A stretch of 64,000 nt of DNA from Cafeteria roenbergensis (lineage: Eukaryota; Sar; Bigyra; Bicosoecida; Cafeteriaceae): assembly GCA_008330645.1 (NCBI GenBank), contig VLTN01000016.1:372001-436000 (forward strand), written 5' to 3'. This document shows positions 1 through 62,514 of this stretch, piece by piece. The first letter of the stretch is position 1. Each line of letters starts with the position of its first letter. Both the position numbers and the translations under genes were made by a program. The notes below the pieces were generated by a model. That model was not told the DNA's origin. It made no database searches and worked only from the letters and a program-made list of their open reading frames with translations.

Positions 1-1312
1 AGCGCAGGTCTTCTCCGTGAGCTTGAGCTTCTGGATCTCCGTGCGGGCGCTGCGGGCGCCCTTGCCGACGGCCGTGCCCCAATACCGCTGCGGGATATGT
101 CAGAGCGAGCGCGCAAGCAGAAAAGAGGGGGCGTTGGCCATGGGGCGCGGGGTGAGCCGCTGTCAAAGGCTGAGCAAGCCCGCGCACCGATGGTATGCGA
201 GCCCGCACACGCTGGCCCTGCATCCAGGTGCAGCTCGCAAAAACGTGCGGCAGGTCGGGACCAGATGAAAGGGGTTGACGACTCGCTCACCGTCACGGTG
301 CCGTCCAGCTCGCAAAGGTACAGCTGGCTCTCCTTGTGGTCCTCGTCGTACCCGCACACCAGCGCGTGCGCGCCGAACGGCCGGTACGCCGCATACGAAG
401 TGTACGCGTAGAGGATGTCGCCAAGCTGCTGAGCAAGCACCCCGGGCGCGATGCGCTCTCCGTAGTTCTGCTTGTACTTGTGGGCGATGTTTTGTGCGAG
501 CCCAACGATCGACTTGCCGTCCGGCCCGATGCCGGAGTACGCCTGCGAAGGCAGGGAACGCAGGGCGTGGGCGCGGGGACAGTGGGGGGGATGGTGCGAT
601 CGCTTGTGCGCCGGCGGCTGCCCCGGCAAGCAAGGCGGCGTGTCCAAGTCAAATGCGCTGCTGCAACGCCGTGCCGGGCAGTGGCAGCTCTGGCCCCAGG
701 CTCACCACGCCGATCTGGTCGTCGACCTTGTGCACGACCTTGCAAGTGGAGTCCACGAGCATCTTCGACATCATGAGCTTCTCCGAGGCGAGGATCACGC
801 CGTCCTTGCACTGCACACCGACGGTCGTCCTGCGGGAGCCGCGGGCAGGAGAGGCGAGGGGCAAGCCAGGTGGTACTGCCCGCGCGGGGCTGCTCACGAA
901 TGCGCCTCAGAAGCGGCCCGGGCAACCACTGAAGCCCGGCTGCTGGGGCTGGGCGCGATGGCAGCGCTGGTTCGCCCGGGAACTGCCCTGCCTCACCCGC
1001 TGGATTCGACGGCCTTTGCGGCGTACTCGAGCTGGTACACCTTGCCCTCCGACGAGATCACGTTGGTGGCATAGTCGTACTGCGGGTCGAATGGCGGCAG
1101 GGAGGCAGCGGCGTGACAAACGGCGCAGTTTGAGGCTGGGCTTGCAGGGCAAGCGTCCGCTCGCGCTGCTCTCCGGCCGCCCGGCGCGCCCGGCGCCAGC
1201 ACGGGGCGGGAACCGCAGCCCAAGCTACGCAGCGCCCGGGCAGCACGCGAAGCGCTGCGCCGCGCGCAAGGCGGGGGCGCGGGGGAAGGGAGGGGCTCAC
1301 TCCCGCCGCCAT
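1..1312 (-). CDS. PSMA3: 20S proteasome subunit alpha type-3 (PSMA3-like), 3' end outside the window
   Basis: This is an alpha-ring subunit of the 20S proteasome core, which degrades ubiquitinated proteins in cytosol and nucleus. Five exons were read on the minus strand: 1312-1301, 1079-997, 829-706, 542-291 and 87 to beyond position 1. All joins keep frame and use GT-AG introns of 163-221 nt. The first exon is only four codons (MAAG). It joins YDYATNVISSEGKVYQLEYA, the N-terminal helix H0 signature of alpha subunits. Later segments CKDGVILASEKL and AYTSYAAYRPFGAHAL, and RYWGTAVGKGARSARTEIQK at the edge, resemble alpha-3 more than other alpha types. The 186 codons present are roughly three quarters of the usual 250 residues. 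The gene lies head-to-head with RPN2, another proteasome gene. Family is secure; the alpha-3 subtype is judged from remembered homologues. Confidence 0.93.
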
Positions 1313-1424
1313 GGCTGCCGCCCTCGCGAGTGGCCGCGGTGAGGGCGCCCGGCGGTCTGTGCGGCGCCTCTGCCGGCAGGCCGGCCCGCGGCGCCCGTCA
1401 GCACAGCCGCCGCGCCGTGCGGGG
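1313..1424. promoter_or_regulatory. Shared upstream region of the divergent PSMA3 / RPN2 pair
   Basis: Only 112 bp separate the two start codons, so both 5' UTRs and any bidirectional promoter must fit here or overlap the genes. The stretch is almost pure G+C with no TATA-like sequence. No known proteasome-control element could be recognised by eye. Confidence 0.5.
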
Positions 1425-4400: not shown

Positions 4401-5442
4401 CTCGTTGCCGTGGCTGCTTTCGTCGCGCGCACCGCTCTCGCTCTCTCTCGCCCTCGCTCTCCTTCGCCCAGCCCAGCCCATTCACCCTGCCCTTGCGCTG
4501 CCACCCTCGCCGTCGTGCCCTCGCAGCACGCCATCCGGGTTCACCAAGCCCACCGCCGTCATCGGCATGGCCCTCTTCACCCAGTACTGGTACTGGTTCC
4601 CCCTCGCCCACTGCCTCTCCCTCGCAACCCACCCCACCTCCGTCGTGGCCGTGGTGCCAGTCAAGGACAAGCCCGGAGAGTTCCGCCTCCCCTCCTCCTT
4701 CGCCCTCGACTGCCGCTGCCGCCCCGGCCTCTTTGCGTACCCCGACATGCTCACCGAAAAGACGGACGACAAGTCCAAGCAGGTCACGAAGGTGGAGCTG
4801 TCCACGGCTTCTCGCACCAAGGCCCGCTCTCGCCAGCGCCAGCTCATGCGGCTTCGCTCGCAGCGGTCCGATGGCTCCCGCCTCAGCCGCAGCCAGTCCC
4901 GTGCCCTCGGCGGAGCAGCCTCCAGCACGCCCGGCGCAGCGGCGGGCGCCGCGTCGCCCTCGCCGGCCGCAGCGTCGTCGTCAGGGGCGGCTGCGGCCAG
5001 CGCAGCAGGAGCAGCCGGCGCCGGCAGCGCCGCGGCGGCTTCTGAAGCCGCCTCGGCGGCTTCGGCAGGACCAGAGGACAAGCCGAAGCAGGAGGCAGCC
5101 GCAAAGGAGGCGTCCCGTTTCCAGGTGCCCAATGCCTCGCGCGTTGCCCCTCCCCAGCGCAAGTTCCTCGCCCTCGTGGAGGGCCAGCGCTGGGCGCCAG
5201 TCCGCAGGGACGTGACCGCCCACGCGGGCGTGCTGGTTGTCCGGGACACTGCGCGCCTCTCTGGCTCAGGCCTTGCCGACGCCACCGACGGCGACCTCGA
5301 GGAGATCAAGCGCCCTCGCGTGGGAGAGGACGCCCAGGAGCCCGAGCCACCCGCGCCCTTTGTGTTCGAGGTGCCGGGCGACGAGTGGGATTCGGCCCAG
5401 GCGAGCGCCGAGGGCGGCGCCTCGGCCACGAAGCGTGCCTAG
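1425..5442 (+). CDS. RPN2: 26S proteasome regulatory subunit RPN2 (PSMD1)
   Basis: This is the largest base subunit of the 19S regulatory particle. It scaffolds substrate receptors and deubiquitinases on the 20S core. Five exons, 1425-1508, 1614-1751, 1986-2402, 2641-4367 and 4527-5442, join in frame to give 1,093 residues; human PSMD1 is about 950. Landmarks in order are IFYHLEAYPEALHLALESAE, the SEYSEKMIGQCIDEYT segment, FYRDNIQWIRQATNWARFSA, and proteasome/cyclosome repeats with GLGLAAMG, VSDVSDDVRRAAVMALGF and NPHVRYGAAMSLG. The C-terminal FTQYWYWFPLAHCLSLA motif follows. An Ala/Ser-rich insertion at 4900-5100 explains the extra length. The ATG at 1425 was chosen because it directly precedes the conserved LEEDDAALK; a second in-frame ATG at 1440 is possible. 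Confidence 0.95.
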
Positions 5443-5680
5443 GTGTGAAAATGCTGCATGTGTGCAGGCTTCGCTCTTGCGGCAACGTGATGGGCAGCCG
5501 CAGGCCCGATTCGCCCGACTGCCGGCCCAGCATGGGAGTCACTGCAAGTTCGCTGGCCAGTTAGCGCGCACAAACCACTCAAAGCACTACACAGTCTGGC
5601 AATGCCAGGATCGCTTGGGGCGCTGGCTCGCAGCCAGCACCTCCAGGCAAAGACGCCAGTGCTGCTGCTGCTGCCGCTGC

Positions 5681-5717
<37 letters not shown>

Positions 5718-5738
5718 GCTGCTGCTGCTGCTGCGGGC
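5443..5738. other. Convergent intergenic region with a CTG/CAG microsatellite
   Basis: This is the 3' junction between RPN2 (+) and the long low-complexity gene (-). The only obvious structure is an interrupted (CTG)n tract from 5661 to 5734. It begins directly after the minus-strand TAG stop (5741-5739) and would lie in that gene's 3' UTR. Confidence 0.5.
5661..5734. repeat. Interrupted (CTG)n / (CAG)n trinucleotide tract
   Basis: About 25 triplets are present, mostly CTG with a few CCG interruptions. Read on the minus strand they are CAG/GCA triplets just downstream of a stop codon, so they are probably untranslated despite resembling a poly-Ala or poly-Gln tract. Confidence 0.85.
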
Positions 5739-8700
5739 CTACGCCCGTGGAGGCTGCCCAGAGGAGCGCTTGCCGCTGGCGCGCACTTGCTGCCAGCGCT
5801 GCCCATCACCGTCCCCAGGGTCGGCTCCTGCCCCAGGCGCGCTGGGCCCGAAGCGCTGCCTCCGCCTGCCTCCACCGGCCCCCTCCCCGCTTTGTGCGTC
5901 GCGTGCGGCGGCACCAGCGCCCGTGCCGCGCTTCCGCCGCCCCCCTCGTCGGGTCCGACCCCTGTCTCCCTCGCTCTGTCGGCTTGATGTCCTGCTTCCA
6001 CGCCTGCCAGAGTCTCTGGAGGCTGGCGCCCCGGCCCGGCGAGCAGCGTCTGCCGCCGCCGCCGCCGCAGCTGCTCCAGAGGCTTCCTCCGCTGGCCAGC
6101 CTCCGAGCGCAGGGTCGCCGTGCCCGGCCGCAGCCCCGCCCACCAGAGGCCCGGAGCCGGGCCCGCCGAGGCCAAACTTGGCGTCGTCGTGGAAGGAGAA
6201 GATGCTGCCAGTGGCAGGGTCGTCCTCCTCCCAGAGCGCCGACACCCCCGCGGAGGAGGGCACAGCAGCGCCCGAGTCGGAGCCCAGACCGCGCGTCAGG
6301 CTGCCGTAGCCGAGGGGCCGGTCGCCGGCCGCGGCCTGGCCGCTCGGCCCCGGGCCCAGCACCGCGAGCGTCACTGCGCCTGCCGGGATGGGGACTCCTG
6401 CCGCTACGCCGAACACGTCCGGATCGTCGTTCCCGCCGCCCCCGCCCGGTCCGGCACTGGCGCCACCGACGGCAGCCGAGGGCGACTCGCCTGGCCCGCC
6501 GGCAGCCCCGCGGTGGCCAAGCGGGCCTGCAAGCAAGGCGGAGCCGCCTTCCCCAAGCGCCAGCAGGGAGTCGTCCGCACCAGCCAGGCCGCGGACCGCC
6601 ATTGCAAAGCGCTCCAGGTCGGGCGTGCCCGCCAGCCCGAGGCCAAGCGCCGATGGCGGAGCCTCCACGCCGTGCCCGGCGGGCGTCAGGGGCAGCCCGC
6701 CGACCTCCTGGCCGAGACCCAGCGCCAGCGGGCCGACGGGGAACACCGTCCCGGACAGGCCAAGCCGGCGCGGGCGCAGCGAGTCCTTGGCGGGCGTGAG
6801 GCCGTGGGGCGCCTCCTGCTCCGGGGCTCGGCAGGCGCTGGGGGGCTCCGGGCTGGACCGTCGCCCGCCCTCGGGCCTCCCCTGCTGGCCGAACGTGCGC
6901 CGCTCTGCGTCGCCCGCGCTGCTGCCATGGACGTCCCTCGCCGTGCTGGGCGGCGGGTTTGACGCCCGTGAGTAGGCTGCGGCCGCTGCTGCCGCCGCCG
7001 CGGCAGCCGCCTCGGGTGCCCCCAGCGGCTCCAGCCGCAGCCTGAATGCCTCCAGCTCTGCAGCGAAGGCGTCGTCATCGCCAGACGCGATGGCCCGGCC
7101 ACGTGCCTCGTAGTCAACGGGGTCTGTTCGGCCGGCGACGGGGTCGCAGCGCGCAGAGCGGCGCCTAGTGGACGGCTCCGGGACGGTGTCACCGGCCGCT
7201 GCCGCCTCCCGCATAGCCCGGGCAGAGGCGGCATCTGCGATGGCGCGGCGGGCAGAGGCCGACACTGCTGAGACGGGCGGGGGCTCGGTCGGGGCGTCGT
7301 CCTCGCCGTCCTCCTTCGCGGCCCGGCGCCGGTCCTTCTGCCTCGCCCGGCGCCGACGCCGCTTCTCGCGGAGGCGCTCCGTGGCCGTGGTGTTGGTCCC
7401 CGTTGTGGAGCCCAAGTCGCTGGTGTCGGCGGACCCCGCCGCTGCGCGCTTAGCGGCATCGCCAGCGGCGGCCGCCGTTGGGGCGTCCCCGCCCGCGCCG
7501 CGATCCAGCAGCGTGGCCGCCGGTCTCTCCTTCCGACGCGCCGCCTCTCGGCGCAGCTCCGAGGGGATGAAGAGCCCGTCGCCGTGGTGCTCCTGGTCGT
7601 CCAAGTGCTCAGCGTAGCCGGGGCCGGCGACGGCCGCGGACGCAGCGGCAGCCGCGACAGCGGCGACCTGCGCTGCGGCGGCTGCGGCTCCCAGCCCTGC
7701 CATGCTTGGCAGGAGGCTCGGCACAGCCCCGGCTGCAACGGCGCCTATGTGGCGCGCGATGCTCTCCTCGAACCCGGCCAGACGGTTGGCGTGGGCCGCA
7801 GCGTCGCCCTTGTCGCCGTCGGCGGTGGCGGCGGCAGCGGCGTAGATAGCGGCCAGCTGCCGTGCGACCGCGCGAATGCTGGGCGCAACGTCGGCGGAAG
7901 GCGGCATAGCGTGCGCCTGCGCGGGCGGTGCGTCCGCGGCCTCGGCTTGCGGGGCAGCGGGCTGCGCGACCGCTGCGAGCGAGACAAGCGCCGCGGCAAC
8001 ACTTGCGGGCTCCGAGGCATCGAGCGGGCGCTGCGCTTCGACGGGGTCGGTGCGCGGGCGGCCCGCCACCCCCACGGAGGCAGCCAGCACAAAGGGGTCC
8101 GCGGGGCCGCTGTCGGCGGGGCTGACTGGGGAGTGGTCCGCCTGGGCCGCGCCCGCGGCGGGCGTGGCGGTCGCCTCCTCGTCGTCACCGCCGCCAAGGG
8201 GCGCGACTGCTGGCGAGGGGGGGTCGGGCGCCGGAGCATCCGTTGCGTCTGACGCTTCGGGCGCCGGCGGCAGGAGCATCGCATGCAGAGCGGTGCTGGG
8301 GCCGGCCACGACTGGCTGGGTCGGGGAGCCAGGCCCGCCGTTCGGGCGCTCGCTGGCGCCCGCGGAGGAGACGGAGGCAGTTGCTGCCGGTGTTGCGGTG
8401 ACCGACAGCGGCGCCACTGAGGCCGACGCGGACGCGGACGGTCTGTCGGCAGCAGCTGTGGCTAAGCGGCCTCCATCGGCCTGCGGGCGCCGGAGGGCAG
8501 CCCGGCTGAGCACCGATCTCGCGTAGGCGAAAGGGTCACCGCCGACGCGCAGAGGGCCCCCGGAGCCGCCCACCGGCGAGCAAGGCCGCGAGGAGCGGAG
8601 CGGGACGCCCAGGCGCGAGGCCCTGCCGCCAGCGCTGGACACGGAGGGGTCTGGTCCGGGCAATCGCAGGGCCAGGTGCAGGCCACTGCGCACCATGCCC

Positions 8701-11700
8701 GTGACGGCGGAGCGGACTCCCCTGCCCGCGTCAGTGGCAGACTCGCTCGCCGAGCCGTCTGTGTCGGCTGCCGCCGAAGCGGCGCTGCCGGGGCGGGGGT
8801 TGGGCCTGCGGTCCCTGCCTCCAAACGCGGCGTCGGTTGCCTGCCCCCCCCCACGCCCAGCCTTGAGCAGCTCCAGGCGCCGACGCCGCGCTGCCCCTGT
8901 GTCGTCCTCCCCCTCGTCCTCGTCCTCGTCCGCGTACCCGTCGTCCTCCTCGCCGGCGCTCCGTCCGCCCGGCGCTGCAAGCGACACAGCCGTTTCGCCG
9001 GTTTCAGCCCGCTCCCTGCGAATGCGCTCGGTGGCGGCTGCTGCAGCAGCGGCTGCCACAGAGGAAACGCTCTCGGAGCGACGGCGAAACCTGCACCCCC
9101 CGGCAGCGAGCGACACTGGGGCTTCGCCCCCCGCAGCGCGCGCCTCCGCCTTGGCGCCCCCTGCGCCTGTCTTCCCCGCATCGCCCCCAGGAGGGGCCTG
9201 CCCCACGCCAGGAGCCGCCCCGGGGACCAGGGCGACCCCAGCAGCCCGCCCTGCCGAGCTGGCGGGCCGGCGGCCCCCTCCTCCGCCCGCGGTCGGGCCG
9301 CCTTCGTCGTCCTCGCTGTGGTCGTCTGCCGCCTCGAACTCGCCCCCCGGCATGCCCAATAGCCTGGCCGGCTGCTGGATCAGCTGAGAGCGGGGCCCCG
9401 TGATGTCGCCACCCTGAAGCGCCGGCCTGCCGTCGTCAGGGCGAGCCTCTGCCTCTGCAGCTGGCGCGCGGAACCCGCCTCCCTCGCTGGCCAAGCCGGA
9501 GGCTCGAGCAGCACTCGCACTGACCACGGCGCCGCTGCCGCTGCTTCCGCCGCCCTCACCCCCGCCCCCGCCCCCGCCGGATGCGGGCCGGTCGGCAGAG
9601 TCAGCTCCAGCGCGAGGGTGCGCCGACGCCGCGCCTCTGGCCAACTGGTCCTCCAGCTCGAAATCGAACTCGTCGACGTCCTCCTCGCCCTCCTCCTTCT
9701 CGTCCTCGCTGCCGTACCCGGAGTCCCCGTCGGGCTCCTCCTCCACCCAGGCAGGGATGCGCCACCTCGACGTCACGTGGGGAGACAGGGACAGAGTCGA
9801 CAAGGCCGCGGCCGCCATCGTCGCCGCTGCTGCCGCCCCCCGCTCGGCGGTTCCGGTGCTGGCGCCGGCTCCGGTGTATTCGTCGTCCCGCGGGAAGGCC
9901 CCCTGGGCGCTGGCGGGCACATAGTGGATCGACGGCAGGGCTGCTGCCGCAGATCCTTCCGCTGAGAAGGGCCCGTCTCCGTCCCGCGGATCGGCTGTCG
10001 CGGGTGCAGCCGCCTCTGCCGGCGCCGTGTCCATGCGGGCCGCCCGAACGGCGGCAGAGGCAGTCGCCGCTGCCAGCCTCGCAGCGGCCGCAGGTGTGGT
10101 GGGGAAGAACCGCGACCCGTGATCGAGGAGCGCGTGGCCCCGACCGGCCTCGCTCGCCCCTGCGTCGCTCGCGCCGTCACCGGCGAAGGAGCCTGCGGCC
10201 CAGCTTGGGCCGTTGGCGCCGCCGCCCGCGCGCCCACGGTGCCACACCGCGCGGCGCCGAGCCGGCGATGCCGAGCTGACGCTGTCAGCTGCGCTGGGGC
10301 CGGAGGCGTAACCGAAGCCGCTCACCGACGCGGCGGAGGACAGCCACCCGCCACTCCCGTCCGCCGTCGGAGCCCCGCGCTGCCGGCCCGCCGTCGTGTC
10401 CCCCAACGGAAGCGCGGCATGGGAGGGCGCGCCCTCCGGCCCCGAGCCGGCGTGATTGGCGGCGCCTGCGGTGGCGGCTGCACCCTCGCCCAGCTCGCCA
10501 GCGCCACGGTCCGCATGCCGCGAGTCCGCCCCAGTTGCGCCAGGCGCAGGAGCCCCGGCCGTCGGCCCCGCCGCCCCGTGCCCGTGGCCCGAGCGCGACC
10601 CGCTGCGCCGCCGCTCCCGCGTCGCCAGCCTGTCGGTGTCCGCCGCGCCCGACGCCCGGGCCTTCTGCCTCCTCCTGGCATCGGACCGGGGCGTGAGGGG
10701 CGGGACCCAGTTGGCTGCCCCCAGCGGGTCGATGACTACAGGCGCGCCGGCCGCGCCGCCCGGACCGGCAGCGGGAGCTTCGTCGATGCCGCACCATGCC
10801 GCATCGTCGACAATCGCCGACGGCGTCGATCGGTATGGAAGGCTGTGACCCGCTGGCAGCGGCACGGCATGCCCATGCTGCTGGTGCTGGTGCTGATGCT
10901 GGTGCTGGTGCTGGTGCTGGCGTTGCTGAAGCGATCGGGCTTCGACGCGCTCCCTCGAGCTCGGGTCGACGCCAGCGCCGCCAGCGTGTGCCTCGGCTGG
11001 CTCGGCAAGCGCCGTTGCGGTCGCTGCAGCAGTCTGAAGGGCGGTGCTGGGCGGCCACGCCGGCTCCTCCAGGCCGAACCTGCCCCTGGCAGCGGCAGCA
11101 AAAGTTCGCTGTCGCCTGTCTGCAGCGGCTGCCAGGGCTGCCGCCGCCGCGCCCCCGACAGCGTGCTGAAGGCCCCTGAGCGCCGCGGCGGGAGAGCGCC
11201 CCGCCTTGGGCCGTGCCCGGAGGTAGCCGTCGGCAGTGAGGCGCCTCGACGCAACGACCACGGCCCGAAGGCCGGTTGCCCCTACGGCCGCCCAAGCGTC
11301 CGACGACTCCGCGTCGTCCTCGTCCTCGTCAGAGTGGTCCGACGCGGCAGGGACGGAGCGGGCGCGGCTGGGACAGCGCCGCGCAGTCGCGGCGCCTTGG
11401 CGAGGCGCAAACTGCTGGTTCTGAAGCTGCTCGAGCCGCTGCTGCCGCGTCGGAGCCGCTGGGATGAAATGTGCCTCCGCCTGCATGTGGCAGGGCCCGC
11501 CCCCGGCGGTCCCTGGCGCTCCTGAACTGGGTGCCAGCGGTGCTGGCGGGCTTGGCATCTGCGCTGAGGCCGCTGCGGCACCTGTTGCTGCGTCTGCGGG
11601 CGTGCGGGCGGCGGGAAGCGCCGGCGGCACGGGAGGGCGCACCGGCTCTGCCCCGGCCAGCGCCGCCATGACAGCCCGGCGAGACAAGGCCCGCGCTCCC

Positions 11701-12855
11701 TCGTCAAGCCAGCCGCCCCGGAAGGCCTTGGCGGCACCGGGCCCATCGGCGGCCCTCGGAACGCCCGCTGCAGGCATGAAGTCTGCATACTCAAGCGATG
11801 CTGGAACAGAGCCGGCTCGGCGCCTCTGCGAGTCCCGCGGCTTGGCTCCCGCCGCGTAGCCCTGTGCGGCCCGCGAGTCGGTGCCGGCCTTGGTCGGCGG
11901 AGCAGGCGTTCCGACCTCCAATGGCAAGTCGCTGTGCGACGCCCCCCACAGCCCGTCACCGTGCCCGGGTGCGCGCATGCCGATCCAGGCAACGTCGGCA
12001 GCCGCTGAGGCGATCGCGGCCACGCCATGCATCCCAGAAGCAGACGCAGCGGCGGCCAGCTGAGGCAGACGGCCTGGCGGAATGTCCGCGAGGTATGCCA
12101 TGACCGCTTGTTCCCTCAACGCGATCGGCTGGCCGGTGGTTGCCTTGCGCACTCTGCGACAACGGAGGCGGGGGGGGGGGATCGGAGAGGGGAAGGCGGG
12201 AGGGCGGGTGACCGAGTTGCACATGACCGGAGGAACGGAGCGCGATTCGCGGCAGCCGGGCTGCCCCCGCCCGCCGCGCGCGCCAGGCCTGCAGCACGGG
12301 CACGTGGCCCCATTGCTTACACCCAAAACTCCAACAGGCACCGGAGGCCGGCCCGGGTCGCCCCAGCGATGGCCACCTCGTGACTGAATACGTCGGCAAT
12401 TCCAGCACCTGCGAGAGGCGGCGAGACGGACCACGTCGGAGGCGCCGCGAGCGGGTTCGAGCCGGAGCACGCCCTGGCCAAGCGCAGCCACTGGGTTCGC
12501 AGCACAGCCCGGCCCGTCGCTCCGGGCCCGCCGGTCGTCGCGCGCGTCCGGGCTGGGGCGCAGCGGCGAGGCCGTGCCTCACTCGCAAGCTGGGGCCAAG
12601 GAAACGCTGCCGCCTCCTCCCCCGAGAGATGCAGCTTCCCGTCGTCACACTGCGAGGACACGGGGCGTCGCTTGTCGGCCGCGCGCAAAACGCCAGTCGC
12701 CCAGTGCGAGGCGCGCAACGGGAAAGGGCGGAGATGCCGTGCGGTCAGCGACTTGCTTCAGCCAAGGCGCGGGGGAAAACGCTTCTACTCACCGACACCA
12801 GCCGTGGGTGGGTGCCGGGCACATCCGCCACGGCCGTCCCTCCCCGCGCGGCCAT
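5739..12855 (-). CDS. Very long low-complexity protein, function unknown (about 2,210 residues)
   Basis: No family was recognised. Four exons fit: 12855-12793, 12649-12583, 12408-12321 and 12153-5739. All three introns (143-174 nt) are GT-AG and the phases match (0, 1, 2), which supports a real gene. The start context encodes MAARGGTAVADVPG, followed by a short ordered-looking region containing ADVFSHEVAIAGATRAGL and REQAVMAYLADIPPGRLPQL. The remainder is one continuous reading frame of 2,138 codons. It is dominated by Ala, Gly, Pro, Ser, Arg and acidic runs, with an HQ dipeptide run near 10875-10925 and a basic C-terminus ending QPPRA. A scaffold or nuclear disordered protein is possible, but nothing in the sequence assigns a function. 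Parts of the long exon could still contain unrecognised introns. Confidence 0.6.
10872..10925. repeat. Hexanucleotide-type repeat coding for alternating His-Gln
   Basis: The plus strand shows repeated CTGGTG units with small changes. On the minus strand this is (CAGCAC)n in frame, encoding an HQHQHQ run inside the long low-complexity protein. Such repeats are prone to length change. Confidence 0.8.
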
Positions 12856-13552
12856 CTACGAGAGCGAGCGCGCTCGCGCCCCGGCCCAGACCCTGCCACT
12901 GCCCGGGAGCGTGTGCCCGCCCTGCTGGAGTCGTCACTGCAGCAGGCTGAACTAGGCGGCAGTGACTCTCGCTCCAACTCTCGCACACAAATACGCGGCC
13001 AGCAGGCAAGCCGCGCCGCAATTGGAACTGCAGCTTTGGCGCGGCCGCACTCTAGGCCTGGCGCGTAGCGGTTGCACGCAAGGTCGAGTGGGTGATGGCG
13101 TGTGACGGCGCTTGGCATCGGCTGTGGCAGAGGTTGCTTGCCAGTGTTGAGGGAGCGCAGCGCAGAGCGTGTCGGGCGCTCTGCCCACACGGACATCAAC
13201 TCGTGGCATGGAGAAAAACTGGGGAGGGGAGAGGCCGGCTGCAGGCCCAGCAGCAGCGGCGGCAAAGGCGGCAAAGACGGCCTTCATCGGCACAAGGGCA
13301 GGGGCTGCCGCGCACACCCAGAACTTGCCAGGGTTGCCACGCGCGCCCCGGCCCGCGAGCGATGCAATGCCGCCCCGCCCCGCCCCGGCCCCAGCCCCGG
13401 CCCGTCAGAGGCGCGCGGAGGGAGAGAGAAAGGCGCCCCCCTCTGACGAGCCGGGTGCTGGCACGGGCCCGCAGCCGGAACGCCAGGCCGCTGTTGGCAA
13501 CCGAGCGAGGATGCGGAAGGCAGCGACAGGATGGGCCCGGGGCGCGGTGCGC
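12856..13552. other. Intergenic region between UQCRC2 and the long low-complexity gene
   Basis: This 697-bp region holds the 3' flank of UQCRC2 and the upstream region of the next minus-strand gene. An ATTGG/CCAAT pentamer occurs near 13020, about 165 bp upstream of the start codon at 12855. No RNA gene or convincing additional reading frame was seen. Confidence 0.4.
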
Positions 13553-15783
13553 TCACTGGAACTTGGAGGCGAAGCGGTCGAAGCGGGGCACGGACTCGAG
13601 GGCGCCGCGCACGCCGAGGGCAGGGTCGGCGGCGAGGCCGGCCTTGGCGACGGCGGCCACGTCAGCGGCGGTGATGCTGTCGTACTCGGCCAGGGTGGCG
13701 GCGACGGAGCCGGGGGTTCCAGTGGCGAGGACAGACTCGGCGATGATGTCCCGGCGGCCGGCGCGGGTGTCGGCGCGGGCGGCAAAGGCCATCTTGCAGG
13801 CGGCCACGGCGCGCTTCACCTCGCGCTCCTCAACGGCGCCTCCGGCGATGGCCTTGATGACGTCGGCGGCGATGTCAATGGCGGACGCCACGGCGGCGCT
13901 GGAGCCGGCGACGGCCTTGATGCCGAAGAGGCCGGAGTCGGAGTGGGAGAAGTTGAATGCCTCGAAGCCGGTGATGCCGGCGGCGGCGCCGCGGGACATG
14001 ACCTCGACAGCCTTGCAGCCGAACATGCCGACCTCCTTGCCCTTGACGGGGGCGCGGCCGATGATGGCGGCGAGCACCTCAGCGGCGCGGGCGGCCTTGG
14101 AGTTGGCCGCGGCGCCCTTGAGGCCCACCATCACGGTGGTGGCGCCGGGGGCGCGCACCAGGTTGGAGCCGCCCTCGAAGGGGCTGGGGGTGGCGTGAGA
14201 CTCGCCCGAGGGGAGGCCGAGGAAGGTGGCATCCATCATGTCGACGAGGGGCTCGTGGGGCACGTTGTTGGCCACGATGACGGCGTTGCCGGACACAAAC
14301 TGGGCACCGAGGTAGGAGCGGAGGGTGTCGGCGGTGAGGGCGCCGTAGTTGGCCTCCTCGGCGGCGAAGGCGTGGCCGAGGGGGGAGGCCAGGCCGTAGG
14401 CGGCGGCGTGGATGAGGTCCTCGTCGGCGGTGGAGCCGAGGCCGGCGGGGGTGCCGGTCTCGAGGTCGCCCGCGAGCACCTCCGACACCTCCCAAGCGGT
14501 GATGCGGGGCTGCATCACCGCCTCGGAGAGGGCGTCGGCGGCGAGGGGGAGCTCGTCGCGCAGGCACTCCATGCCGTAAGCGGTGCCCTCGCGGCCGGCG
14601 GTGGCGGAGAAGGAGCCGCCGAAGTTGTCAATGTCCCGGCGCAGCTTGTACGTGGAGCGGGCGCTGGTGCTGCGGAAAGCCATGGCCTGGAGCACGTGGG
14701 CAGTGCCGTGCACCACGTCGGCGCGGGACCCGGCGCCGACATAGAAGCCGAGGGAGGCGTTGTTGCCGTGGGTGTCCAGGGACACCACGCGCAGCCCGTT
14801 GGCCAGCTTCGTGGTCTTCACCTCGGTGGGGGCCAGCGCCGGCTGGGGGGTGGCCTTGGGCGTGCTGCGATGGGCGCGGAATCGCGAGCACGACATGCAG
14901 GGGCCAACGAGGGTGGAAAGCAGCGGAAAGGCGCACAAAGCGACCGGGCTCACGCCCACGACGAGCGCAGGGCCGTGGCGGGCACTGGAACGCGCGCGGG
15001 AGGGGGGTGGGGGGAGGCGGGGGGACCGGGGAGCCGCGGCGCCGCGCGACGACCGAGCATTGAACGAGGCGAGGTCAGTGACGAGATCCCCGCTCCGGCC
15101 ACGCCGCCCCTCCCCCTCCCGCCGAAGAGGGCCTGCGCGGGCCGGAGCCGGACCGCTCCGCCAGCAGGAGCCCCCCAGAGGCCAGCGGTGTACCCACGGG
15201 ATGCTGGCAAGCGGCACGGGGGTGGGGCGGGGCTGCGCGCGCGCGCGGCAAGGCCGCAGCTGCCGGGCACCTCGGGCGGCTCGCAGCTGCGCCGCTGGCG
15301 TCCGGCTGCGCGCGCCGTCCCCCCTGGCGGGCCTGGCTTCCCCCGCTCCCCCCGAGCGCCTCGGCCGGGCCCTTTGTGGCGGCCTGGGGGAGGGTGCGGC
15401 GCGGGCGCGGCCGGGGGAGGGCGCCGGCTTGCGTGTCACGCTCGCATCGCGCGGTGTTTTTGTGCGAGCCTCACCCCGGGAAGACCTCGTCGAGCGAGTT
15501 CTGCTTGGGCAGGTCGAAGAACCGCGCCATGGCGCCGGCGGCCTTGGCGTCCTGGGAGCGCACGGCCACCTCGGTGGACATGTGCCGGGCGGCGTTCTGC
15601 GGGGCGACGCGCGGGGGGGGCGGAGGAGCGGCGGGCGCGAGGCGGTCAGCACTGCGCACCTGGCGCCTCGAAAAGGGGCACGACGGCACGGGCTCGCCGC
15701 CGCGCGCGCGCGCTGGTGGCTCCGCGCCGCTGCGCGGCGGCCCGCTGGCCACTCACGGCAGCGCGGGAGGCGGCAGCCCTCAT
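13553..15783 (-). CDS. UQCRC2: Cytochrome bc1 complex core protein 2 (UQCRC2-like, M16 family)
   Basis: This is a core subunit of mitochondrial respiratory complex III. Exons 15783-15757, 15596-15475 and 14864-13553 join in frame to give 486 residues; the human protein has 453. The 27-nt first exon gives MRAAASRAA, the start of an Ala/Arg-rich mitochondrial presequence that continues to NAARHMS. The mature part contains KLANGLRVVSLDTHGNNASL, the M16 helix GTAHVLQAMAF, GMECLRDELPLAADALSEAV, the YLGAQFVSGNAVIV segment and FNFSHSDSGLFGIKAV; the last is close to core protein 2. The zinc site HxxEH of active processing peptidases is absent at the equivalent helix, as expected for core 2. MPP-alpha is the main alternative. 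Intron 2 (610 nt) is the longest intron in the window. Confidence 0.88.
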
Positions 15784-53645: not shown

Positions 53646-54928
53646 TTACTCCTCCTTGCGCGAAGCCGCCGCAGCGCCGGCAGCCCGCACGGTCACTGTG
53701 GCCGGAGTGCCCACCTCCGGGGCCTTGACCACCCCCGTGTCCACGTCGACGAGCCTGTTCGTGCTCAGGCCCAGCGGCACGCCGAGGAAGCGGAGCACCG
53801 CCGTGGTGGGGGTCAGGAACTTGCGGTAGGTGGCGGCCTTGGCCTCTGACCCGCGCCGGACAGGCAGCGCGCTTGCGCCTCGGATGCGGGGCACCATCCA
53901 GTCGGCCACGGTAGACGGCATGTCGGCAAGCACGTTGAACATCCAGAGGCCGCCCCGAGTGGGCTGCGGCACGCAGCAAACGGGGTGGCGAGGCCGGGAA
54001 ATGGGTTTGGGCGGAGGGGGGGGGGGGGGGGGGGGGGGCGCTGCTGCTGTTGTGACGCGAGCCATCGGAGCAGCAAGGGCACCGAACAGGGCCGAGGGCA
54101 GATTGGGAGCGATTGGGGCCCAGCCTGGTGCTGGCTGCCGGGCGGGGGGAACATCTTGCCTGTGGCGATCCAAGGCGCGGCTGCGCCCAGCGTTGCTTTG
54201 CTCACCGACTTGAGAAGCAGAGAGGTCATCACCATGCCGGGCGACAGCCCGTGGATGACCACGCCCGTGCCTTTGCACTCGCGGCGTAGGGAGGAGAGCA
54301 GCTGCGGCGTGCCGGCTTTGGTGAATCCATACGACGCGAACGTGGGCGTGGCCATGCCAGTGGCGCCCGCGCCGTCCATGAGGAACAGGTGTCCGCCGTT
54401 CTCTTGGGCGCGCATCGTGTTGATTGCCTCGCGGGCCACCAGCAGCGTGCCGAGGGTGTTCGTCCGCACCACGGTGCTGATGTCTGCGACGGGCGTTTCG
54501 GGCAGGTCAACGTTTTCCCGCTGCCCCGCGCCCGCGTTGTGCACGACCACGTCGATCTCCCCACCGAGCGCGATCTTGCATTGCACCATCATGTGGGTCA
54601 CGTCCTCGGCGTCGGTCACGTCGGCCTTCACAGCAGACAGCTCGTCTTTGCTGCTCGCGACGGCGCGCTCAAGCGCAGCAGCGTCCCGGCCCACGATGCA
54701 GACGTGGTCTCCCATTTCAGCGAAGCGAGTGGCCAGGGCATAACCGATTCCACGGCTTCCGCCGGTGATCACAACGCGGAGGCCCCGGGGCTTGGAGTCC
54801 TGCGCGTGGAACACGCCGAGCTCATCCGCGACTCGCGCGGCCGCACGAAGGGCCACGATTCCCGCCACGCCGCCGGCGACAGCCAGCACGCTGTTCGGCA
54901 CGCGAGTGTCTCCCGAGAACCATTCCAT
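53646..54928 (-). CDS. Short-chain dehydrogenase, chlorophyll b reductase-like (NYC1/NOL type)
   Basis: NYC1 and NOL reduce chlorophyll b to 7-hydroxymethyl chlorophyll a in thylakoids. Exons 54928-54206 and 53963-53646 join in phase 0 to give 346 residues. A hydrophobic N-terminal segment (SVLAVAGGVAGIVALRAAAR) precedes the Rossmann fold. SDR motifs are intact: TGGSRGIG cofactor loop, NAGAG, and YxxxK as YGFTK. The stretch GGHLFLMDGAGATGMATPTF then GLSPGMVMTSLLLKS is closer to NYC1/NOL than to other SDRs as I remember them. The C-terminal MFNVLADMPSTVADWMVPRI matches the same group. A general membrane SDR acting on lipids is the alternative. If the assignment is right, the organism has or had chlorophyll b. 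Confidence 0.78.
54016..54038. repeat. 23-bp poly-G run (poly-C on the transcribed strand) in an intron
   Basis: An uninterrupted G run lies within the single intron of the reductase gene. In transcript sense it is poly-C, about 50 nt upstream of the splice acceptor, and may serve as the pyrimidine tract. Length is likely to be unreliable in sequencing. Confidence 0.85.
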
Positions 54929-55251
54929 GCCTCCGCCAGGCAGTGTGCGGAGCCGCCCATGCTGCTCCGTCGCGCCTGGCCGGCAGAGCGGTGCGCGGGA
55001 CGCTCGGCCCTCCCGAGCCCGCCCCACTCGGAGCTGACGGCGACACCATGGCGAGGGGAGGCATCCCTCCAGAGGCTTTCGGCGTCCACCCGCCACGAGT
55101 GCCCATCGGACCTCGCGTTCTGCCTGTGAGCGCGCTGCCGCGGCAGTCAGGGAGAGTTCCTGGCGCCGGCGTTGCGTTGGGGCGCCACGAGCTGCCTTTG
55201 CAATCGCGCCCACGCCACGCCGTCTGAAGTGTGCGCGCCCCACAGGGAGAC
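54929..55251. promoter_or_regulatory. Shared upstream region of divergent reductase and FAM177 genes
   Basis: These 323 bp lie between divergent starts. They are GC-rich with no motif recognised and no additional gene seen. Confidence 0.3.
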
Positions 55252-55949
55252 ATGGAAGACGGTGACGAGGAGGAGGAGGCGCCCTACTACTGGGAGGCTG
55301 GAGGCGACGCCGACGTTTCGACAGCAACGGCGCTGGCGCACAACCTGCACTTCTGGGGCTCCTTGGCCCTCGCTGGTGAGGTCCGAGCTGCCCTGCCGTC
55401 TCCCCTTTTACCCGTGGCCATCCCTGGTCCGAGCAGCGATGGCAGTCTGGCGTGGAACCGGCGTCCGACGCAGCTGGCCCGCACCGCCAGCTCAGCATGC
55501 CCACCTGCCCTACCCCCCCCTCCTGCCCCGTTGCTCATGCTCTTCGCCTCGCAGGCGTTGACAGTGTCGGGAGCGTGCTGGCCAGCACGCTGGGACTGAC
55601 CCAATCCCGCTACCAGTTCGAGATCGACTACGCAGAGGGGCAGCGCGAGAACATCCGACGGCAGATCATCGCGCGGCGGCAGCGCGAGCTCCTGCAGAGG
55701 GAAGAGGCGCGCAGGGCCGTGGCGGAGCGCGCAGGCAGGCCCGTGGAAGGCGTCAGCGCAGCGCGAGCCGCCAGTGACGCCTACGCGCGCGAAGTTGCGG
55801 AGCGGGCCGCGGCTGGCCTTCCAGAAGTGGACGAGCCAGACGCGGCCACAGGGGGCGCGGCCGTGCCTGGCAGCAAGGCCAGCCGGTCCATGCCGCGCGC
55901 AGGATCCGGCAGGCCGGCGAGCAAAGCAGCGGAAGAGGAATCAGTGTGA
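55252..55949 (+). CDS. FAM177 family protein
   Basis: Exons 55252-55375 and 55555-55949 join in phase 1 to give 172 residues. The N-terminus is acidic (MEDGDEEEEAPYYWEAGG) followed by a hydrophobic patch. The core GVDSVGSVLASTLGLTQSRY then QFEIDYAEGQRENIRR matches the FAM177 signature, in which a short hydrophobic helix (human ASVLGISTPKYQYAIDEY) precedes a charged coiled coil. The coil continues as RRQRELLQREEARRAVAERA. FAM177 proteins are small and poorly characterised. The family match is by remembered sequence and was not tested by a search. Confidence 0.8.
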
Positions 55950-57964: not shown

Positions 57965-60429
57965 TCAGCATCGGTGGGAGCTTGCGCTCAACCGGCTGCA
58001 GGCGCAGATTCTCCACATGGCAAGCCCCCGGCGGCGGTGCCAGCGCTGGATTCGCTCAGCGTTGCGAAGCGCCTGCCTGCAGGCTGCGTCGCTCCCGCGC
58101 ACCATGCTCTCAAAGTGGCCCTGCGCGAATCCATCGGCGCAGTGGTTAACATCGCAAGCGGTGTCGCTGACATTGGATGAAGCGGTGAGCGATGTGCAAC
58201 GAGCAGCGAGCGACCCTGAAGGCGAGGTCGCGGCGAGGGCACCATGGCGCGTGAGGGAGGACAAAATGGTCCTGCCTGCCGTATGTCAGCGATCGCGGAT
58301 AGCCATCAAGAGAGAGGGCGGGGCACAGACTCGATCGCTGCAACCTTTGAACCGCAGTGGCTGCAAACGGACTGACGTTGTAGTAGAACTCATACCTAGC
58401 GCCGCGCTCCAGAAGCAATGTCAGAGTCTCTGCCTTGCCGCAGCTGGTGGCCACCATAAGAGCTGTGTTTTTGAGCTGCGACGCCAAATTCCAAAGAGAC
58501 CGCAAGCCGCGCGCCCACACGCCTTGGCAAGCGTCGCCTCCTGGCAGCTCGCGGGTGCAGCACGCCCCCATGCGGTGGCGCTTGAGGTAAAGGCACTAGG
58601 CGTGCTTACCTCGCTCCTCGCCTCCAGCTCGGCGCCGCGGTCCAGCAGCAGACGCACGACACTGGTGTGACCACGGGCTGTTGCCTGGAGAAGCGCGGTC
58701 TCGCCGATCTGCGTGGCAGCACAGCTGACTTCCAGTACAAGGCCCCTGTTTCGTGGCCGCCAAACAGCAACGGGCGTCGCAGATGCCACAACGGCAGCGG
58801 GGGTGCACACCTGCGGCTGCCGGCTGAATGTGCAGCTCTCCGGCTTGGTCCGGTCCTGGCATCAGACTCACAACGTTCCGAGCCGCCACGGCGGCGCCAT
58901 GATCCAGCAGCACGCGTGTGACCTCCAAATTTCCCTCCGCCGCGGCATGAATGAGCGGAGTGTGCCAGTCCTGCGCAATGACGCGGATGGGGACCTCAAG
59001 CTGATTCTCGAGATGTGACGCTGCCGCTCAGCCAAGCTCCTGCGCTGCAGCTGCAGAGGGCCGTGCGTTCGGATGCCCCCCCCCCCCCCGTCCACCACGG
59101 GCACCCTTGCCGGCCAGCATGCCTTGCGATTGCGGCCGGTTGTCTAGCCATGCCTGCAGCCAGCCTGACCTCGTCTATCTCCTCAGTGTTCGCGCCGCGT
59201 TCCAGCAGGAGCTTTGCTGCCGGGACGTGTCCCTCCGCTACAGCCAGCGACAGGGGAGTCGACCAGCGCTGCAACACCAGCGCGAAAGTTAGTAGCCAGC
59301 AGACTCGGTCGCCCCAGCTGTGGCGCTCGGTGGCAGCTCAGTGTGCCGAGCCGCGAGCACGGCGCCCCTGGCTGCGCCAGCCCCAAACAGCTGGAGCCGC
59401 AGCTGGAAGCAAGGCCACTCTGCTGCGCCAAGGGCGATGTGCACCGCCTCGCACGGCCCACTGCGGCGTGCCTGCATGCGTGGCACGATGCCTCGCCGAG
59501 TCTCACGTCGTCCTTGATCGCAAACTCTGCCCCGCAGTCCAGCAACACGCGCGCCGCTCCCACATGGCCCTCCTCAGCGGCGAACATGAGAGCGGTCCTT
59601 TCTTCCTGCGGCAGCTCACATGCGACGCCCAGCATACTGACGCGCAATGGCTGTGTTGCACCATCTGGAAGGGCCTCCCGGCGTGGCCCCAGAGGCAGCG
59701 CCCGAGTTTCCCTTGCGGGAGAATCGCGCCCCTTCCTGCTTCAGCCATTCCTTAGGCCAAAGCGCCAGGGAGCCTCACCTCATTCTTGGCCTCAATGCTG
59801 GCGCCGCGGTCGATGAGCATCTGGACCATGTCAGCATTGCCTTGCTTCGAGGCCCACATGAGGGGCGTCTGACCGTACTGCGCGGTCACGTAAGCGAAGA
59901 GCGAAAGAACTTGCCCAGAACGATGTGCTGGCATCATGCTGCTTCGGCGACTCGGCGAAGCGCTCGGGCGTTGCAGTCCTTGCGGCGCAGCCCTCGCCCG
60001 GCGCGCTCCACGACCAGGCACTGCATCGTGCGACGCGGTGGGCTCAGTGGGCGGCAAAGGAAAGCCACACAGCCAGCACAGCCACATCGCCTGACCTCGT
60101 CCTTGGCCTCCAGGTCCGCGCCGCAGGCGAGCAGGAGGCCAGCAAGCTCTACGTTTGCCTCGAATGCTGCCGTGATGAGCACCGTCTGCCCGCCCTGCGT
60201 GAACACCAGCGCGGAAACACAGAAGCCCCGCCCTGTCAAACCCGGAGACACAGAATGCGCCGCAGGCGTCGCGTCTAAAGCAGCCCCGAGCCAGAAGGCT
60301 CACAGGGCTGCGCCACTCCAGAGGCGCGCCCGCGTCCAGCAGCCTCTTGACCTCGCCCGGGTCCCCCTGCTTCACAGCCTCCAAAAGGTCCAGCCCGCTT
60401 GGCGCAAGGCTCGCTGCCACGGAGGCCAT
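57965..60429 (-). CDS. Ankyrin-repeat protein in which each repeat is one 99-nt exon
   Basis: Nine exons were read: 60429-60304, 60194-60096, 59877-59779, 59605-59507, 59268-59170, 58970-58872, 58708-58610, 58475-58377 and 58120-57965, giving 324 residues. Exon 1 (42 codons) is a capping repeat with LDLLEAVKQGDPGEVKRLLD. Exons 2-8 are each exactly 33 codons and each holds one ankyrin repeat, for example QTPLMWASKQGNADMVQMLI, RTALMFAAEEGHVGAARVLL and ETALLQATARGHTSVVRLLL. Every repeat begins just before TPL/TAL-type residues and ends near AKDE/ARSE. All introns are phase 0; donors are GTGAG, GTCAG or GTAAG. Exon 9 is the least certain and is not ankyrin-like. Ankyrin arrays bind protein partners; the partner is unknown. 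Confidence 0.88.
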
Positions 60430-60623: not shown

Positions 60624-62514
60624 TCAGCGACGCGCGTGGACAACCGACCCGTCCGCCTTGTTCACCACGCGGGTGAACCGCAACAGCAGGTCCACCAGCG
60701 TGCGACCGGGACCTGTGATGGGGTCCACGAATGGCTGGATTTGTTCCTTGGCCCACTCCGTCTGCTTCGTGAACAGGGCAGCGAAGCGCTCCTTGGCATC
60801 AAGTGGGAGCTCGTCCTCCGGGTAGCACTCCAGCAGCGTCTCGCCAGCCCTTTCGTGTCGTACGAACAAGCCCTCTAGAATGCTCAGCTTGGCCTCGAAC
60901 CCGTCCAGCGAGTATTCGCCCTGTTCATCCTCCAGGGCCTCAACATCGGAGTCGCTCGTGCCTGGGACCTGCTTGGCTGCCTCTTTGAGCGATGGCGGCC
61001 CGCCGAGCGCGGTCAAGTTCGCCACGGCCGCCGCCCATGCCGCCAGGAACTCCCCCTCCTCGATCAACTGCAAGCACACGAGTCGACGTGGGCGCCGTTC
61101 AACCTCTCAATCACTCGCAGGGCCGCGAGCCGAGCGTGCCAAGGCCAGGGGCTGCCTGCTCGCAGGGCAGCGCGCGACTGCATCAGACGCGTCTCACTCC
61201 TGCTTTGCCAGCCGCTTGCTGGCGAACGAGGTCCAGGAGCTGCCTGCCCAAGAAGCGCGCCGCGCGGCGAGCCGACACGCACCACTTGCCGGCCTGCGTC
61301 GGGTGCTCTCGGCCCAGCCTTGCAAGCGCGAACCGGACTGCGTATGCGGGGAAGCGGTCTCCAACAAACGCTGCAACGGAGGATGGCCGCACCGAGAGCA
61401 GCGGCATTGCGTTTTCTGCGATGGCGTCCAGAACTGCCCCGATGACGGCAGCTCGCAGCTCCGGAGAGATGAGTCGCTCGTAGCCTGCGAGACACGGCAA
61501 CCAGCTCAGCGACAAGAGGCAGGCGGGCGCAGGAAATCGCCGGCGGCTCCACCTTTGCCCTCCCACAGACAGCGCGCGAGCAGGCGCGCGTCGCTGCTGG
61601 CGCCATCCTTCCCCGCTCACCCTTCCGCCGCACCACCCCCAAGGCGGAGAGCTCCACCAAGATCTCGGCGCGGCTTGCTTGCACGCATGCTTCCAGGTCC
61701 CGAAGCGTAAAGTGCGTCGCGCGGTTGAGCGTGCGCGTCTCCGCGAGAGCGGCCTTCCCGGCCGGGGTCGCAGCAGCGCCGTCGTCGGCCCCCTTGACTG
61801 CCGACGCAGCAGCGGCGCTCGCGCTCTTGCTCGATGGCGTCTTGGGCGGGGAGACCGGAGCCCCTGCCGGCGGCGCTGGGGCCCCTGTCGCGACATCGGC
61901 GCCGCGCCCTCGCTTCCGCGGGGAAAACGTTCCGCCGTCCGCGTCGTCCTCGCCTGCGGCCGCGTCCTCATTGGCATCCTCTACAGTTAGCATGCTTCGC
62001 TGCAGCAGCGAATGCAGCAACTCCAGCCTGGGCGGCGTCGGCTTGGCCTCGAATGAGCTGCCGCACAGTCCCACGACCTCAATGTCTCGTCCCACGCGAG
62101 CAGCGCCACCAGCCGCCGCGGACTCGTCGCCGCTCAAGTCATCGTCGTCATCGTCATCCCCAGCAGCACCGAGCTGGGCCAGCAGCAGCGTGTTGGACGT
62201 CTCGACAAGTTGGAGCTCGAACGTTTTGGTTTCTGTGCAGACCACCGCATTGCTTCCTGCTGCCGCCTTGACCCACAGCCTGCACGGGAGAATAGGGCCC
62301 GAGGCAAGCACACGAGACCCATGTGGCGGCCAGCCCTGCTCTAGCGAGGCGCTGCTGCCGCCCAGGCCGAGGAATGATTTCAAACTCACGACTTGCCGGC
62401 CTCAATGTGCTTGAGAAGGTCGCCTTCCAGGGTCATCAGCTTGTACTCCGACTTGACCAGGCGCGGCGCAAACACCACGAGGCTGTTGTCCAGCCTGGCC
62501 TTGATGTCCTCCAT
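60624..62514 (-). CDS. DSCC1: Sister chromatid cohesion protein DCC1 (CTF18-RFC subunit)
   Basis: DCC1 joins CTF8 and CTF18 in an alternative clamp loader acting on PCNA during replication and cohesion. Exons 62514-62390, 62279-61621, 61484-61198 and 61067-60624 join in frame to give 504 residues; human has 393. Landmarks are the N-terminal YKLMTLEGDLLKHIEAGKS, CTETKTFELQLVETSNTLLL (human CSKDKTYDLKIADTSNMLLF), a short helical segment ASRAEILVELSALGVV, then GEFLAAWAAAV and the C-terminal ERFAALFTKQTEWAKEQIQP with SVVHARR, matching human ERFNSLFSLREKWTEEDIAP and YNSRR. Extra length is an Asp-rich run (GDDDDDDDLSGDES) and a Pro/Ala/Ser-rich linker. The ankyrin gene starts 194 bp downstream on the same strand. 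Confidence 0.9.

What the first reader, a model, noticed from the sequence alone, without database searches (positions are those of the whole stretch)
57965..60429. Ankyrin gene with seven consecutive 99-nt exons, one 33-residue repeat per exon
Exons 2-8 are each exactly 99 nt, begin and end at the same point of the ankyrin consensus and are separated by phase-0 introns of 134-256 nt (109 nt after exon 1). This makes every exon symmetric, so repeats can be duplicated, lost or skipped without breaking frame. It points to growth of the array by exon duplication. It could also allow splice variants that change repeat number. The strict exon-repeat register across seven exons is unusual.
Basis: seen in the sequence. 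Interest (0 to 1): 0.8.

Follow-up and report, generated by a model that had tools for sequence, protein, structure and literature searches.

The report
Natural ankyrin-repeat binder library, exon by exon
A gene built from seven equal 99-letter exons, each one ankyrin repeat, is an old member of a family of roughly a hundred genes in a marine flagellate, and many of its relatives carry tandem exon-intron units whose introns stay similar while the predicted binding residues differ, as in an engineered binder library.

Summary
In detail: exons 2-8 (minus strand, 60194-58377) are each 99 nt, phase 0, one ankyrin repeat each. Exon 1 is an N-cap; a ninth exon (58120-57965) is a C-cap with a 'QRWHRRR..L..W' tail. 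In this genome the arrangement is not rare. The assembly fits Cafeteria burkhardae BVI (inferred). A C-cap query has 106 matches (93 at E up to 0.001), an N-cap query 123 (98); about 70 places have both. In 25 sibling arrays a filter for 99-nt ankyrin exons found 267, many in tandem exon+intron units of about 270-341 nt. Units with similar introns differ most at codons 1, 3, 7, 8, 11, 12, 14, 32, 33. Positions that differ between repeats of a PDB DARPin exceed introns in 18 of 19 arrays (median 5.8-fold for five positions, 5.2-fold for six), core codons 1.3-fold. Two near-identical copies (C5, C90) differ by one repeat exon, with breakpoints in introns. So exon duplication is supported for the family; the window gene itself is old and saturated. 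Closest known kind: fungal NLR repeats under diversifying selection, but no NOD domain here. Recognition function is inferred; splice variants are untested.

The parts
60304..60429 (-). exon 1: start codon and N-capping half repeat (MASVAASLAPSGLDLLEAVKQGDPGEVKRLLDAGAPLEWRSP)
   Evidence: matched by the family N-cap query, E 0.00115
60096..60194 (-). exon 2, 99 nt, ankyrin repeat 1
   Evidence: AG|99 nt|GT, open frame
59779..59877 (-). exon 3, 99 nt, ankyrin repeat 2
59507..59605 (-). exon 4, 99 nt, ankyrin repeat 3
59170..59268 (-). exon 5, 99 nt, ankyrin repeat 4
58872..58970 (-). exon 6, 99 nt, ankyrin repeat 5
58610..58708 (-). exon 7, 99 nt, ankyrin repeat 6
   Evidence: its 3' part has DNA matches across sibling arrays
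58377..58475 (-). exon 8, 99 nt, ankyrin repeat 7
57965..58120 (-). exon 9: C-capping segment with tail ERIQRWHRRRGLAMW and stop codon
   Evidence: matched by the family C-cap query, E 3.1e-6

Best explanation
The window gene is an old member of a family of about a hundred genes for stand-alone ankyrin proteins built like DARPins: N-cap exon, a variable number of one-repeat exons of 99 nt, C-cap exon with a basic tail. Shown in sibling genes: tandem exon+intron units; one repeat exon present in one copy and absent from another, near-identical copy; introns and structural-core codons similar between units while codons at the predicted target-binding surface differ strongly. Inferred: the similar introns act as recombination handles; unequal exchange and conversion add, remove and shuffle whole repeats, and 99-nt phase-0 exons keep frame and fold intact; diversifying selection keeps new residues mainly at the binding surface. 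Also inferred, with less support: the proteins are intracellular recognition modules (variable concave surface, shared QRWHRRR-type tail that docks a common partner), plausibly against the giant viruses, virophages or bacteria this phagotroph meets. The window gene has left the exchange pool and is a fixed, diverged member.
For: Family: C-cap query 106 matches, all 106 candidates scored, 93 at E up to 0.001, on 55 contigs; N-cap query 123 matches, 98 at E up to 0.001; 71 N-to-C pairs, window gene included. Arrays: 267 exons in 25 arrays. Surface: positions that differ in all three repeats of DARPin chain 5leb_A (1, 3, 11, 12, 31, 33) diverge more than the preceding intron in 18 of 19 arrays (p 8e-5), median 5.2-fold; without 31, 5.8-fold; core codons 1.3-fold. 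Codon changes at the five positions 1593 nonsynonymous to 83 synonymous, core 700 to 379 (pairs not independent). Random codon sets reaching the observed mean: 10 of 237,336 for five positions, 175 of 1,107,568 for six. Held-out arrays: 0.263 at the top nine codons, 0.070 elsewhere, 0.046 introns. Codon-sharp profile over 12 arrays. In the 341-nt subfamily, 72 of 1262 between-gene unit pairs have introns at most 5% apart, mean 0.039, and differ 0.405 at the five positions, 0.018 in the core. Shuffling: 413 of 1744 codon pairs fail the four-gamete test. C5/C90.
Against: L024 (4 units, 3 pairs) shows no difference at the DARPin positions. Codon 31, a DARPin position, exceeds introns in only 7 of 19 arrays. 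Core codons exceed introns in 12 of 19 arrays and clearly so in some (L019 0.097 against 0.018; L034 0.173 against 0.061), so introns may be homogenised beyond the exons there and the ratios overstated. The window gene's own repeats show no recent exchange. The C5/C90 difference is one exon but net 242 bases, less than the 272-base unit, with 53 poorly aligned junction bases. No expression, binding or population data. Function rests on analogy only.
Confidence: 0.6

Rival explanations
1. Ordinary ankyrin gene with an ancestral one-repeat-per-exon structure, as in animal ankyrins, kept for structural reasons; the window gene has a fixed cellular function and the sibling arrays are a separate story.
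For: Window introns show no clear homology to each other, exons 40-59% identical; best PDB relatives are animal ankyrins 1 and 2. That animal ankyrin genes have many 99-nt exons is recalled, not found in a call.
Against: Matches the family's N-cap and C-cap queries (E 0.00115 and 3.1e-6) and has the same exon register as the sibling arrays.
Confidence: 0.22
2. Targeted hypermutation: the surface codons are changed by a dedicated mutator (retro-templated or deaminase-like) and not by selection on ordinary mutations.
For: Codon-sharp pattern next to nearly unchanged introns: at mean intron divergence 0.0025 the nine variable codons differ 0.160 (29 pairs; 23 of the 29 from three arrays, L035, L031 and L019); codon 11 differs at all three bases in 24% of 586 pairs.
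Against: No single base is the target: all three codon positions vary and the codon sets are mixed; changes at the five positions are overwhelmingly nonsynonymous. Neither a template repeat nor a mutator gene was searched for.
Confidence: 0.1
3. Parallel intron insertion into a pre-existing uninterrupted array (introner-type gain at the same site of each repeat), not exon duplication.
For: Introns sit at the same point in every repeat of the arrays; an uninterrupted relative with a similar tail exists (L043, 602 aa).
Against: Introns are alignable between units of an array and an exon with most of an intron comes and goes between copies; in the listed rows of the genome DNA search no match lies inside a window intron, although some extend up to about 20 bases past an exon end (155 matches, not all listed).
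Confidence: 0.05
4. Assembly artefact: collapsed or chimeric long-read assembly of repeats creates the apparent variation and the C5/C90 difference.
For: Repeats are hard to assemble; C5/C90 look like unmerged haplotypes or a recent duplication.
Against: Errors would not be expected to concentrate at DARPin surface codons, be nonsynonymous and spare introns.
Confidence: 0.03

Closest known systems
Podospora anserina NWD/NLR repeat genes (het-d, het-e; ANK and TPR NLRs), PMC1805685 and PMC4986451 (passages read)
   Same: Gene family, near-identical repeats, repeat-number change, exchange within and between genes (WD), excess change at the interaction surface (concave face for ANK)
   Different: Here only ankyrin families in the window protein, no NACHT/NB-ARC; each repeat is its own 99-nt exon and the intron is part of the duplicated unit; a stramenopile, not a fungus
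DARPins (engineered ankyrin binders), PMC8229355 and PMC8683736 (passages read)
   Same: N-cap, variable number of 33-residue internal repeats, C-cap; variable positions 1, 3, 11, 12, 33 in the exon register
   Different: Natural; variable also at 7, 8, 14, 32, and at 31 only in some arrays (7 of 19 above intron level); a distinct C-terminal QRWHRRR-type tail
Animal ankyrins (ANK1/ANK2/ANK3)
   Same: Ankyrin solenoid; best PDB matches; 99-nt exons recalled
   Different: No stand-alone capped repertoire with surface diversification known to me (recalled)
Accelerated horizontal evolution of protein repeats, e.g. PRDM9 zinc fingers (PMC5120217, passages read)
   Same: Repeat copies diverge under positive or relaxed selection
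   Different: Here introns give a yardstick inside each unit

Membership tests
Ankyrin repeat proteins (Pfam PF12796/PF00023) | 33-residue ankyrin repeats over the Pfam cut-off | tested here: met
   Ank_2 190.2 bits (cut-off 27.3), Ank 157 bits (cut-off 21.1)
NLR / NWD-type recognition proteins | NACHT or NB-ARC domain in the same protein | tested here: not met
   Window protein has only ankyrin families. Siblings were not scanned with Pfam; in the seven whose upstream I read an N-cap start exon precedes the array, and 13 of 22 arrays show a C-cap downstream
NLR / NWD-type recognition proteins | Near-identical repeats with excess change at surface positions | tested here: met
   sibling arrays; not the window gene, whose repeats are diverged
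DARPin-like capped ankyrin binders | N-cap, internal repeats, C-cap, variable surface positions | tested here: met
   binding itself not testable here
Introner elements | Intron sequence shared with introns of unrelated genes | tested here: inconclusive
   no match inside a window intron in the rows listed of 155; common words are skipped by that search, and sibling introns were not searched
Exon-cassette systems with alternative splicing (Dscam-like) | Alternative inclusion of exons in transcripts | not testable with these tools
   no RNA data
Family of the window (caps + 99-nt exons) | N-cap, C-cap with QRWHRR..W-type tail, 99-nt phase-0 ankyrin exons | tested here: met
   the C-caps aligned had been picked by their RWHRR motif

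The most novel reading that the evidence does not exclude
A germline-encoded natural binder library: a marine protist that hosts giant viruses and virophages carries about a hundred DARPin-like genes whose one-repeat exons are shuffled through similar introns and diversified at the binding surface, with a shared tail recruiting a common effector; an anticipatory recognition system analogous to, but built differently from, NLRs and lamprey VLRs, possibly extended by exon-skipping isoforms and by a codon-targeted mutator.
Probability: 0.25. Interest if true: 0.92.

Novelty: new variant of a known kind. Interest (0 to 1): 0.74.

Why it matters
If right, evolution has arrived at the design of engineered ankyrin binder libraries: fixed scaffold, caps, variable surface, with exon borders at the repeat borders so that recombination in introns makes new binders without breaking the fold. 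It would give a stramenopile protist a candidate recognition repertoire in an organism with a laboratory giant virus and virophage (CroV, mavirus; PMC8547959, PMC10945749, passages read). The introns provide a yardstick inside each unit, so that the shares of selection, conversion and mutation in a repeat repertoire can be measured.

Tried and rejected
Aligning the window gene's introns with each other: only short matches, best E 0.008. Light-harvesting genes to place the organism among algae: 0 matches, which turned me to a heterotroph. Exon-duplication literature: searches returned nothing; others (8 listed; 3 listed) nothing on point, judged from listings. One listed paper holds the words Cafeteria, bicosoecid and ankyrin (PMC7852580); I saw only the listing. 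Viral contigs encoding the C-cap: 62 pattern hits, none confirmed. Structure prediction was not asked for: a spliced protein is not given letter for letter by the DNA, as that tool requires. Pairing an exon with its following intron gives old first exons a young intron; I repeated the test with the preceding intron and lead with that. DARPin position 31 was left out of the five-position set after I had seen that it varies little; the six-position set is reported beside it. Rows dropped: 6 of 25 arrays (2 with fewer than 3 units, 4 with fewer than 2 pairs at or below 10% intron divergence). L042 was not entered as an array. The uninterrupted ankyrin genes were not analysed beyond L043. One C-cap match (C36:365228) was left out of the region list but is. 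My note says 17 of 22 arrays show the C-cap motif; a recount gives 13 (12 RWHRR, one QQWHRR).

Full report
Observation. The seven exons are real as sequence features. On the minus strand, exons 2-8 are each exactly 99 nt, open, flanked by AG and GT, phase 0, each one ankyrin repeat in the same register. With the filter of at least 7 of 12 consensus residues the region gives 7 exons and 200 Markov-1 sequences give none; with at least 6 they give 1 and with at least 5 they give 14 in all; the rest of the window gives none at 7. Exon 1 (126 nt) holds the start codon and an N-capping half repeat; exon 9 (58120-57965, 156 nt) is the last exon. The CDS is 975 nt, 324 aa. Pfam sees ankyrin families only; the best solved relatives are animal ankyrins. 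Of five nearby open frames scanned, three carry known families: one a short-chain dehydrogenase, two parts of Dcc1.

Organism. The assembly is 36,303,456 bases in 167 contigs, the window 65-77% GC in 2-kb steps, with no light-harvesting match. Cafeteria roenbergensis (named C. burkhardae in later papers) strain BVI is published as 36,327,047 bp in 170 contigs, 70.1% GC (PMC6972860, passages read). The identification is an inference from these numbers. That paper has no occurrence of 'ankyrin' in its main text, nor have two virophage papers on this host (PMC8547959; PMC10945749).

The window gene alone. Its exons are 40-59% identical in nucleotides, third positions 0.39 identical against 0.32 expected from composition, and its introns share only short matches. 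Its history is not readable from itself.

The family. A DNA search with the gene found many places with matches at fixed spacing. Twenty regions were fetched, later five more. A filter for AG|99 nt|GT frames with ankyrin residues found 267 exons in 25 arrays, with introns of 103-261 nt, median 210 (221 introns). The filter sees only 99-nt exons in this register, so exons of other lengths would be missed; two arrays with spacings near 700 nt hint at such. Units repeat with periods such as 278, 289, 308, 318 and 341 nt. In the seven array genes whose upstream I read there is a similar N-cap exon (that output was cut in its middle). A C-cap with a WHRR motif lies within 1.5 kb downstream of 13 of 22 arrays (12 RWHRR, one QQWHRR; several regions end sooner). 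The 13 C-caps aligned had been picked by the RWHRR motif, so its invariance there is by construction; the Trp nine residues after the first one was not part of the pick and is kept in 13 of 13. A C-cap query matches 106 places, all candidates scored, 93 at E up to 0.001, the window gene at 3.1e-6, on 55 contigs. An N-cap query matches 123 places, 98 at E up to 0.001, the window gene at 0.00115; some weak N-cap matches may be internal repeats. 71 C-caps have a same-strand N-cap within 15 kb and no other C-cap between, window gene included; by hand, about 68 if N-cap matches that begin at query position 10 or later are left out. Some of these places may be two haplotypes of one gene. A sibling with five such exons and a C-cap lies on the same contig about 9 kb left of the window (L039). 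An uninterrupted relative ending in LQRWFRRRHLVFW also exists (L043).

Diversification. Between units of one array, introns can be nearly identical while exons differ. At mean intron divergence 0.0025 (29 pairs) nine codons differ by 0.160 per site and the rest of the exon by 0.052; at 0.0067 (33 pairs) 0.204 and 0.051. 23 of the 29 pairs come from three arrays and 21 of the 33 from one, L019. The mean profile over 12 arrays is sharp at codon level: last five intron bases 0.006, codon 1 0.167, codon 2 0.029, codon 3 0.168, codon 11 0.401, codon 12 0.331, codon 13 0.076, codons 25-30 at most 0.024. The nine codons were chosen from the data, so I used two controls. First, positions that differ in all three repeats of a DARPin in the PDB, read in our register from the alignment to chain 5leb_A: 1, 3, 11, 12, 31, 33; positions 4, 16, 27 and 29 differ in one of its three repeats. 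With the preceding intron as yardstick these six exceed introns in 18 of 19 arrays (sign test p 8e-5), median 5.2-fold; without 31, which I dropped after seeing that it varies little, again 18 of 19, median 5.8-fold; core codons exceed introns in 12 of 19, median 1.3-fold; codon 31 alone in 7 of 19. Of all possible sets, 175 of 1,107,568 (six codons) and 10 of 237,336 (five codons) reach the observed mean. Codon changes at the five positions are 1593 nonsynonymous to 83 synonymous, in the core 700 to 379; pairs are not independent. With the following intron it is 22 of 22 arrays, median 5.3-fold, for the five positions. L024 is the exception in the main test. In some arrays the core is well above introns (L019, L034), so introns may be homogenised beyond exons there. 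Second, nine positions chosen in half of the arrays and tested in the other half: 0.263 against 0.070 for other codons and 0.046 for introns, mean of 200 splits of 19 arrays. Between different genes of the 341-nt subfamily (55 units), 72 of 1262 pairs have introns at most 5% apart, mean 0.039, and differ 0.405 at the five positions and 0.018 in the core. Codon states are combined in mosaic: 413 of 1744 codon pairs fail the four-gamete test.

Exon gain and loss. C5 and C90 hold two near-identical copies: no mismatch in aligned blocks of 869 and 326 bases and 6 in the block of 2316. C5 has one ankyrin exon that C90 lacks; the net difference there is 242 bases, less than the 272-base unit, with 53 poorly aligned bases at the junction; both ends lie in introns. 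Further on, C90 is interrupted by low-GC DNA and the last three exons of C5 are not seen in the part of C90 that was fetched. They may be alleles or a recent duplication.

Mechanism. Shown: tandem exon+intron units; one exon present or absent between near-identical copies; intron and core similarity with surface divergence; mosaic combinations. Inferred: recombination runs through the introns, which make up about two thirds of each unit, so that whole repeats are exchanged in frame; selection keeps change at the binding surface. A mutator aimed at these codons is not excluded. Inferred with less support: intracellular recognition with a shared tail that recruits a common partner. The host meets giant viruses, virophages and bacteria, but nothing here tests the ligand.

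Comparison. Fungal NWD/NLR genes show the same regime: internal repeat conservation, repeat-number change, exchange between genes and positive selection at the interaction surface, for WD and also, with signs of the same, ANK and TPR repeats (PMC1805685 and PMC4986451, passages read). The genes here work alike in that respect but the window gene is not an NLR: only ankyrin families in its protein. The architecture is that of DARPins (PMC8229355, PMC8683736, passages read). I call it a new variant of a known kind. My searches for a description in print (open-licence PMC library only) found none; this is not proof of absence.

Limits. No RNA, no other strain, no binding data. The arrays were found by similarity to the window gene and are not a random sample of the genome. 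Pair counts and four-gamete counts come from related units. Exon borders rest on sequence and on recurrence of the register.

Noticed in passing
L020 (C94:10001-20000) near 1538-1668; L042 (C90) low-GC end; 26 places in the genome: A palindrome of about 130 bases at the edge of low-GC DNA (36-46% GC) interrupts ankyrin arrays in C94 and C90; the C5 copy of the C90 array lacks it. The end sequence occurs at 26 places (52 matches); by hand comparison, eight lie within about 2 kb of an ankyrin-family match, which looks like more than chance but was not tested. It may be the end of an endogenous virophage or another low-GC element (not identified).
   Followed up: partly
C63 about 174600-191914 and C78 about 433-14374: Caps of several genes match in order between the two contigs with nearly constant offset, but one gene (C63 187751 region) seems missing on C78: haplotypes or a segmental duplication that differ in gene content.
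   Followed up: no
L030 (C14:374001-384000), L037 (C38:247001-254000): Arrays with about 700 nt between most exons that my 99-nt filter finds, so units with exons of another length are likely.
   Followed up: no
L031, L034, L035 downstream of the arrays: A stretch of up to 1500 nt, 96-98% identical, follows arrays of different subfamilies; a shared 3' region or a mobile element.
   Followed up: no
C28, C46, C45, C48, C86, C126, C162: Long uninterrupted ankyrin frames with many repeats; C126 and C162 give near-identical scores and may be copies with different repeat numbers.
   Followed up: no
window 60624-62389, minus strand: Dcc1 (sister chromatid cohesion) gene directly upstream of the ankyrin gene; short-chain dehydrogenase gene at 53813-55504.
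   Followed up: no
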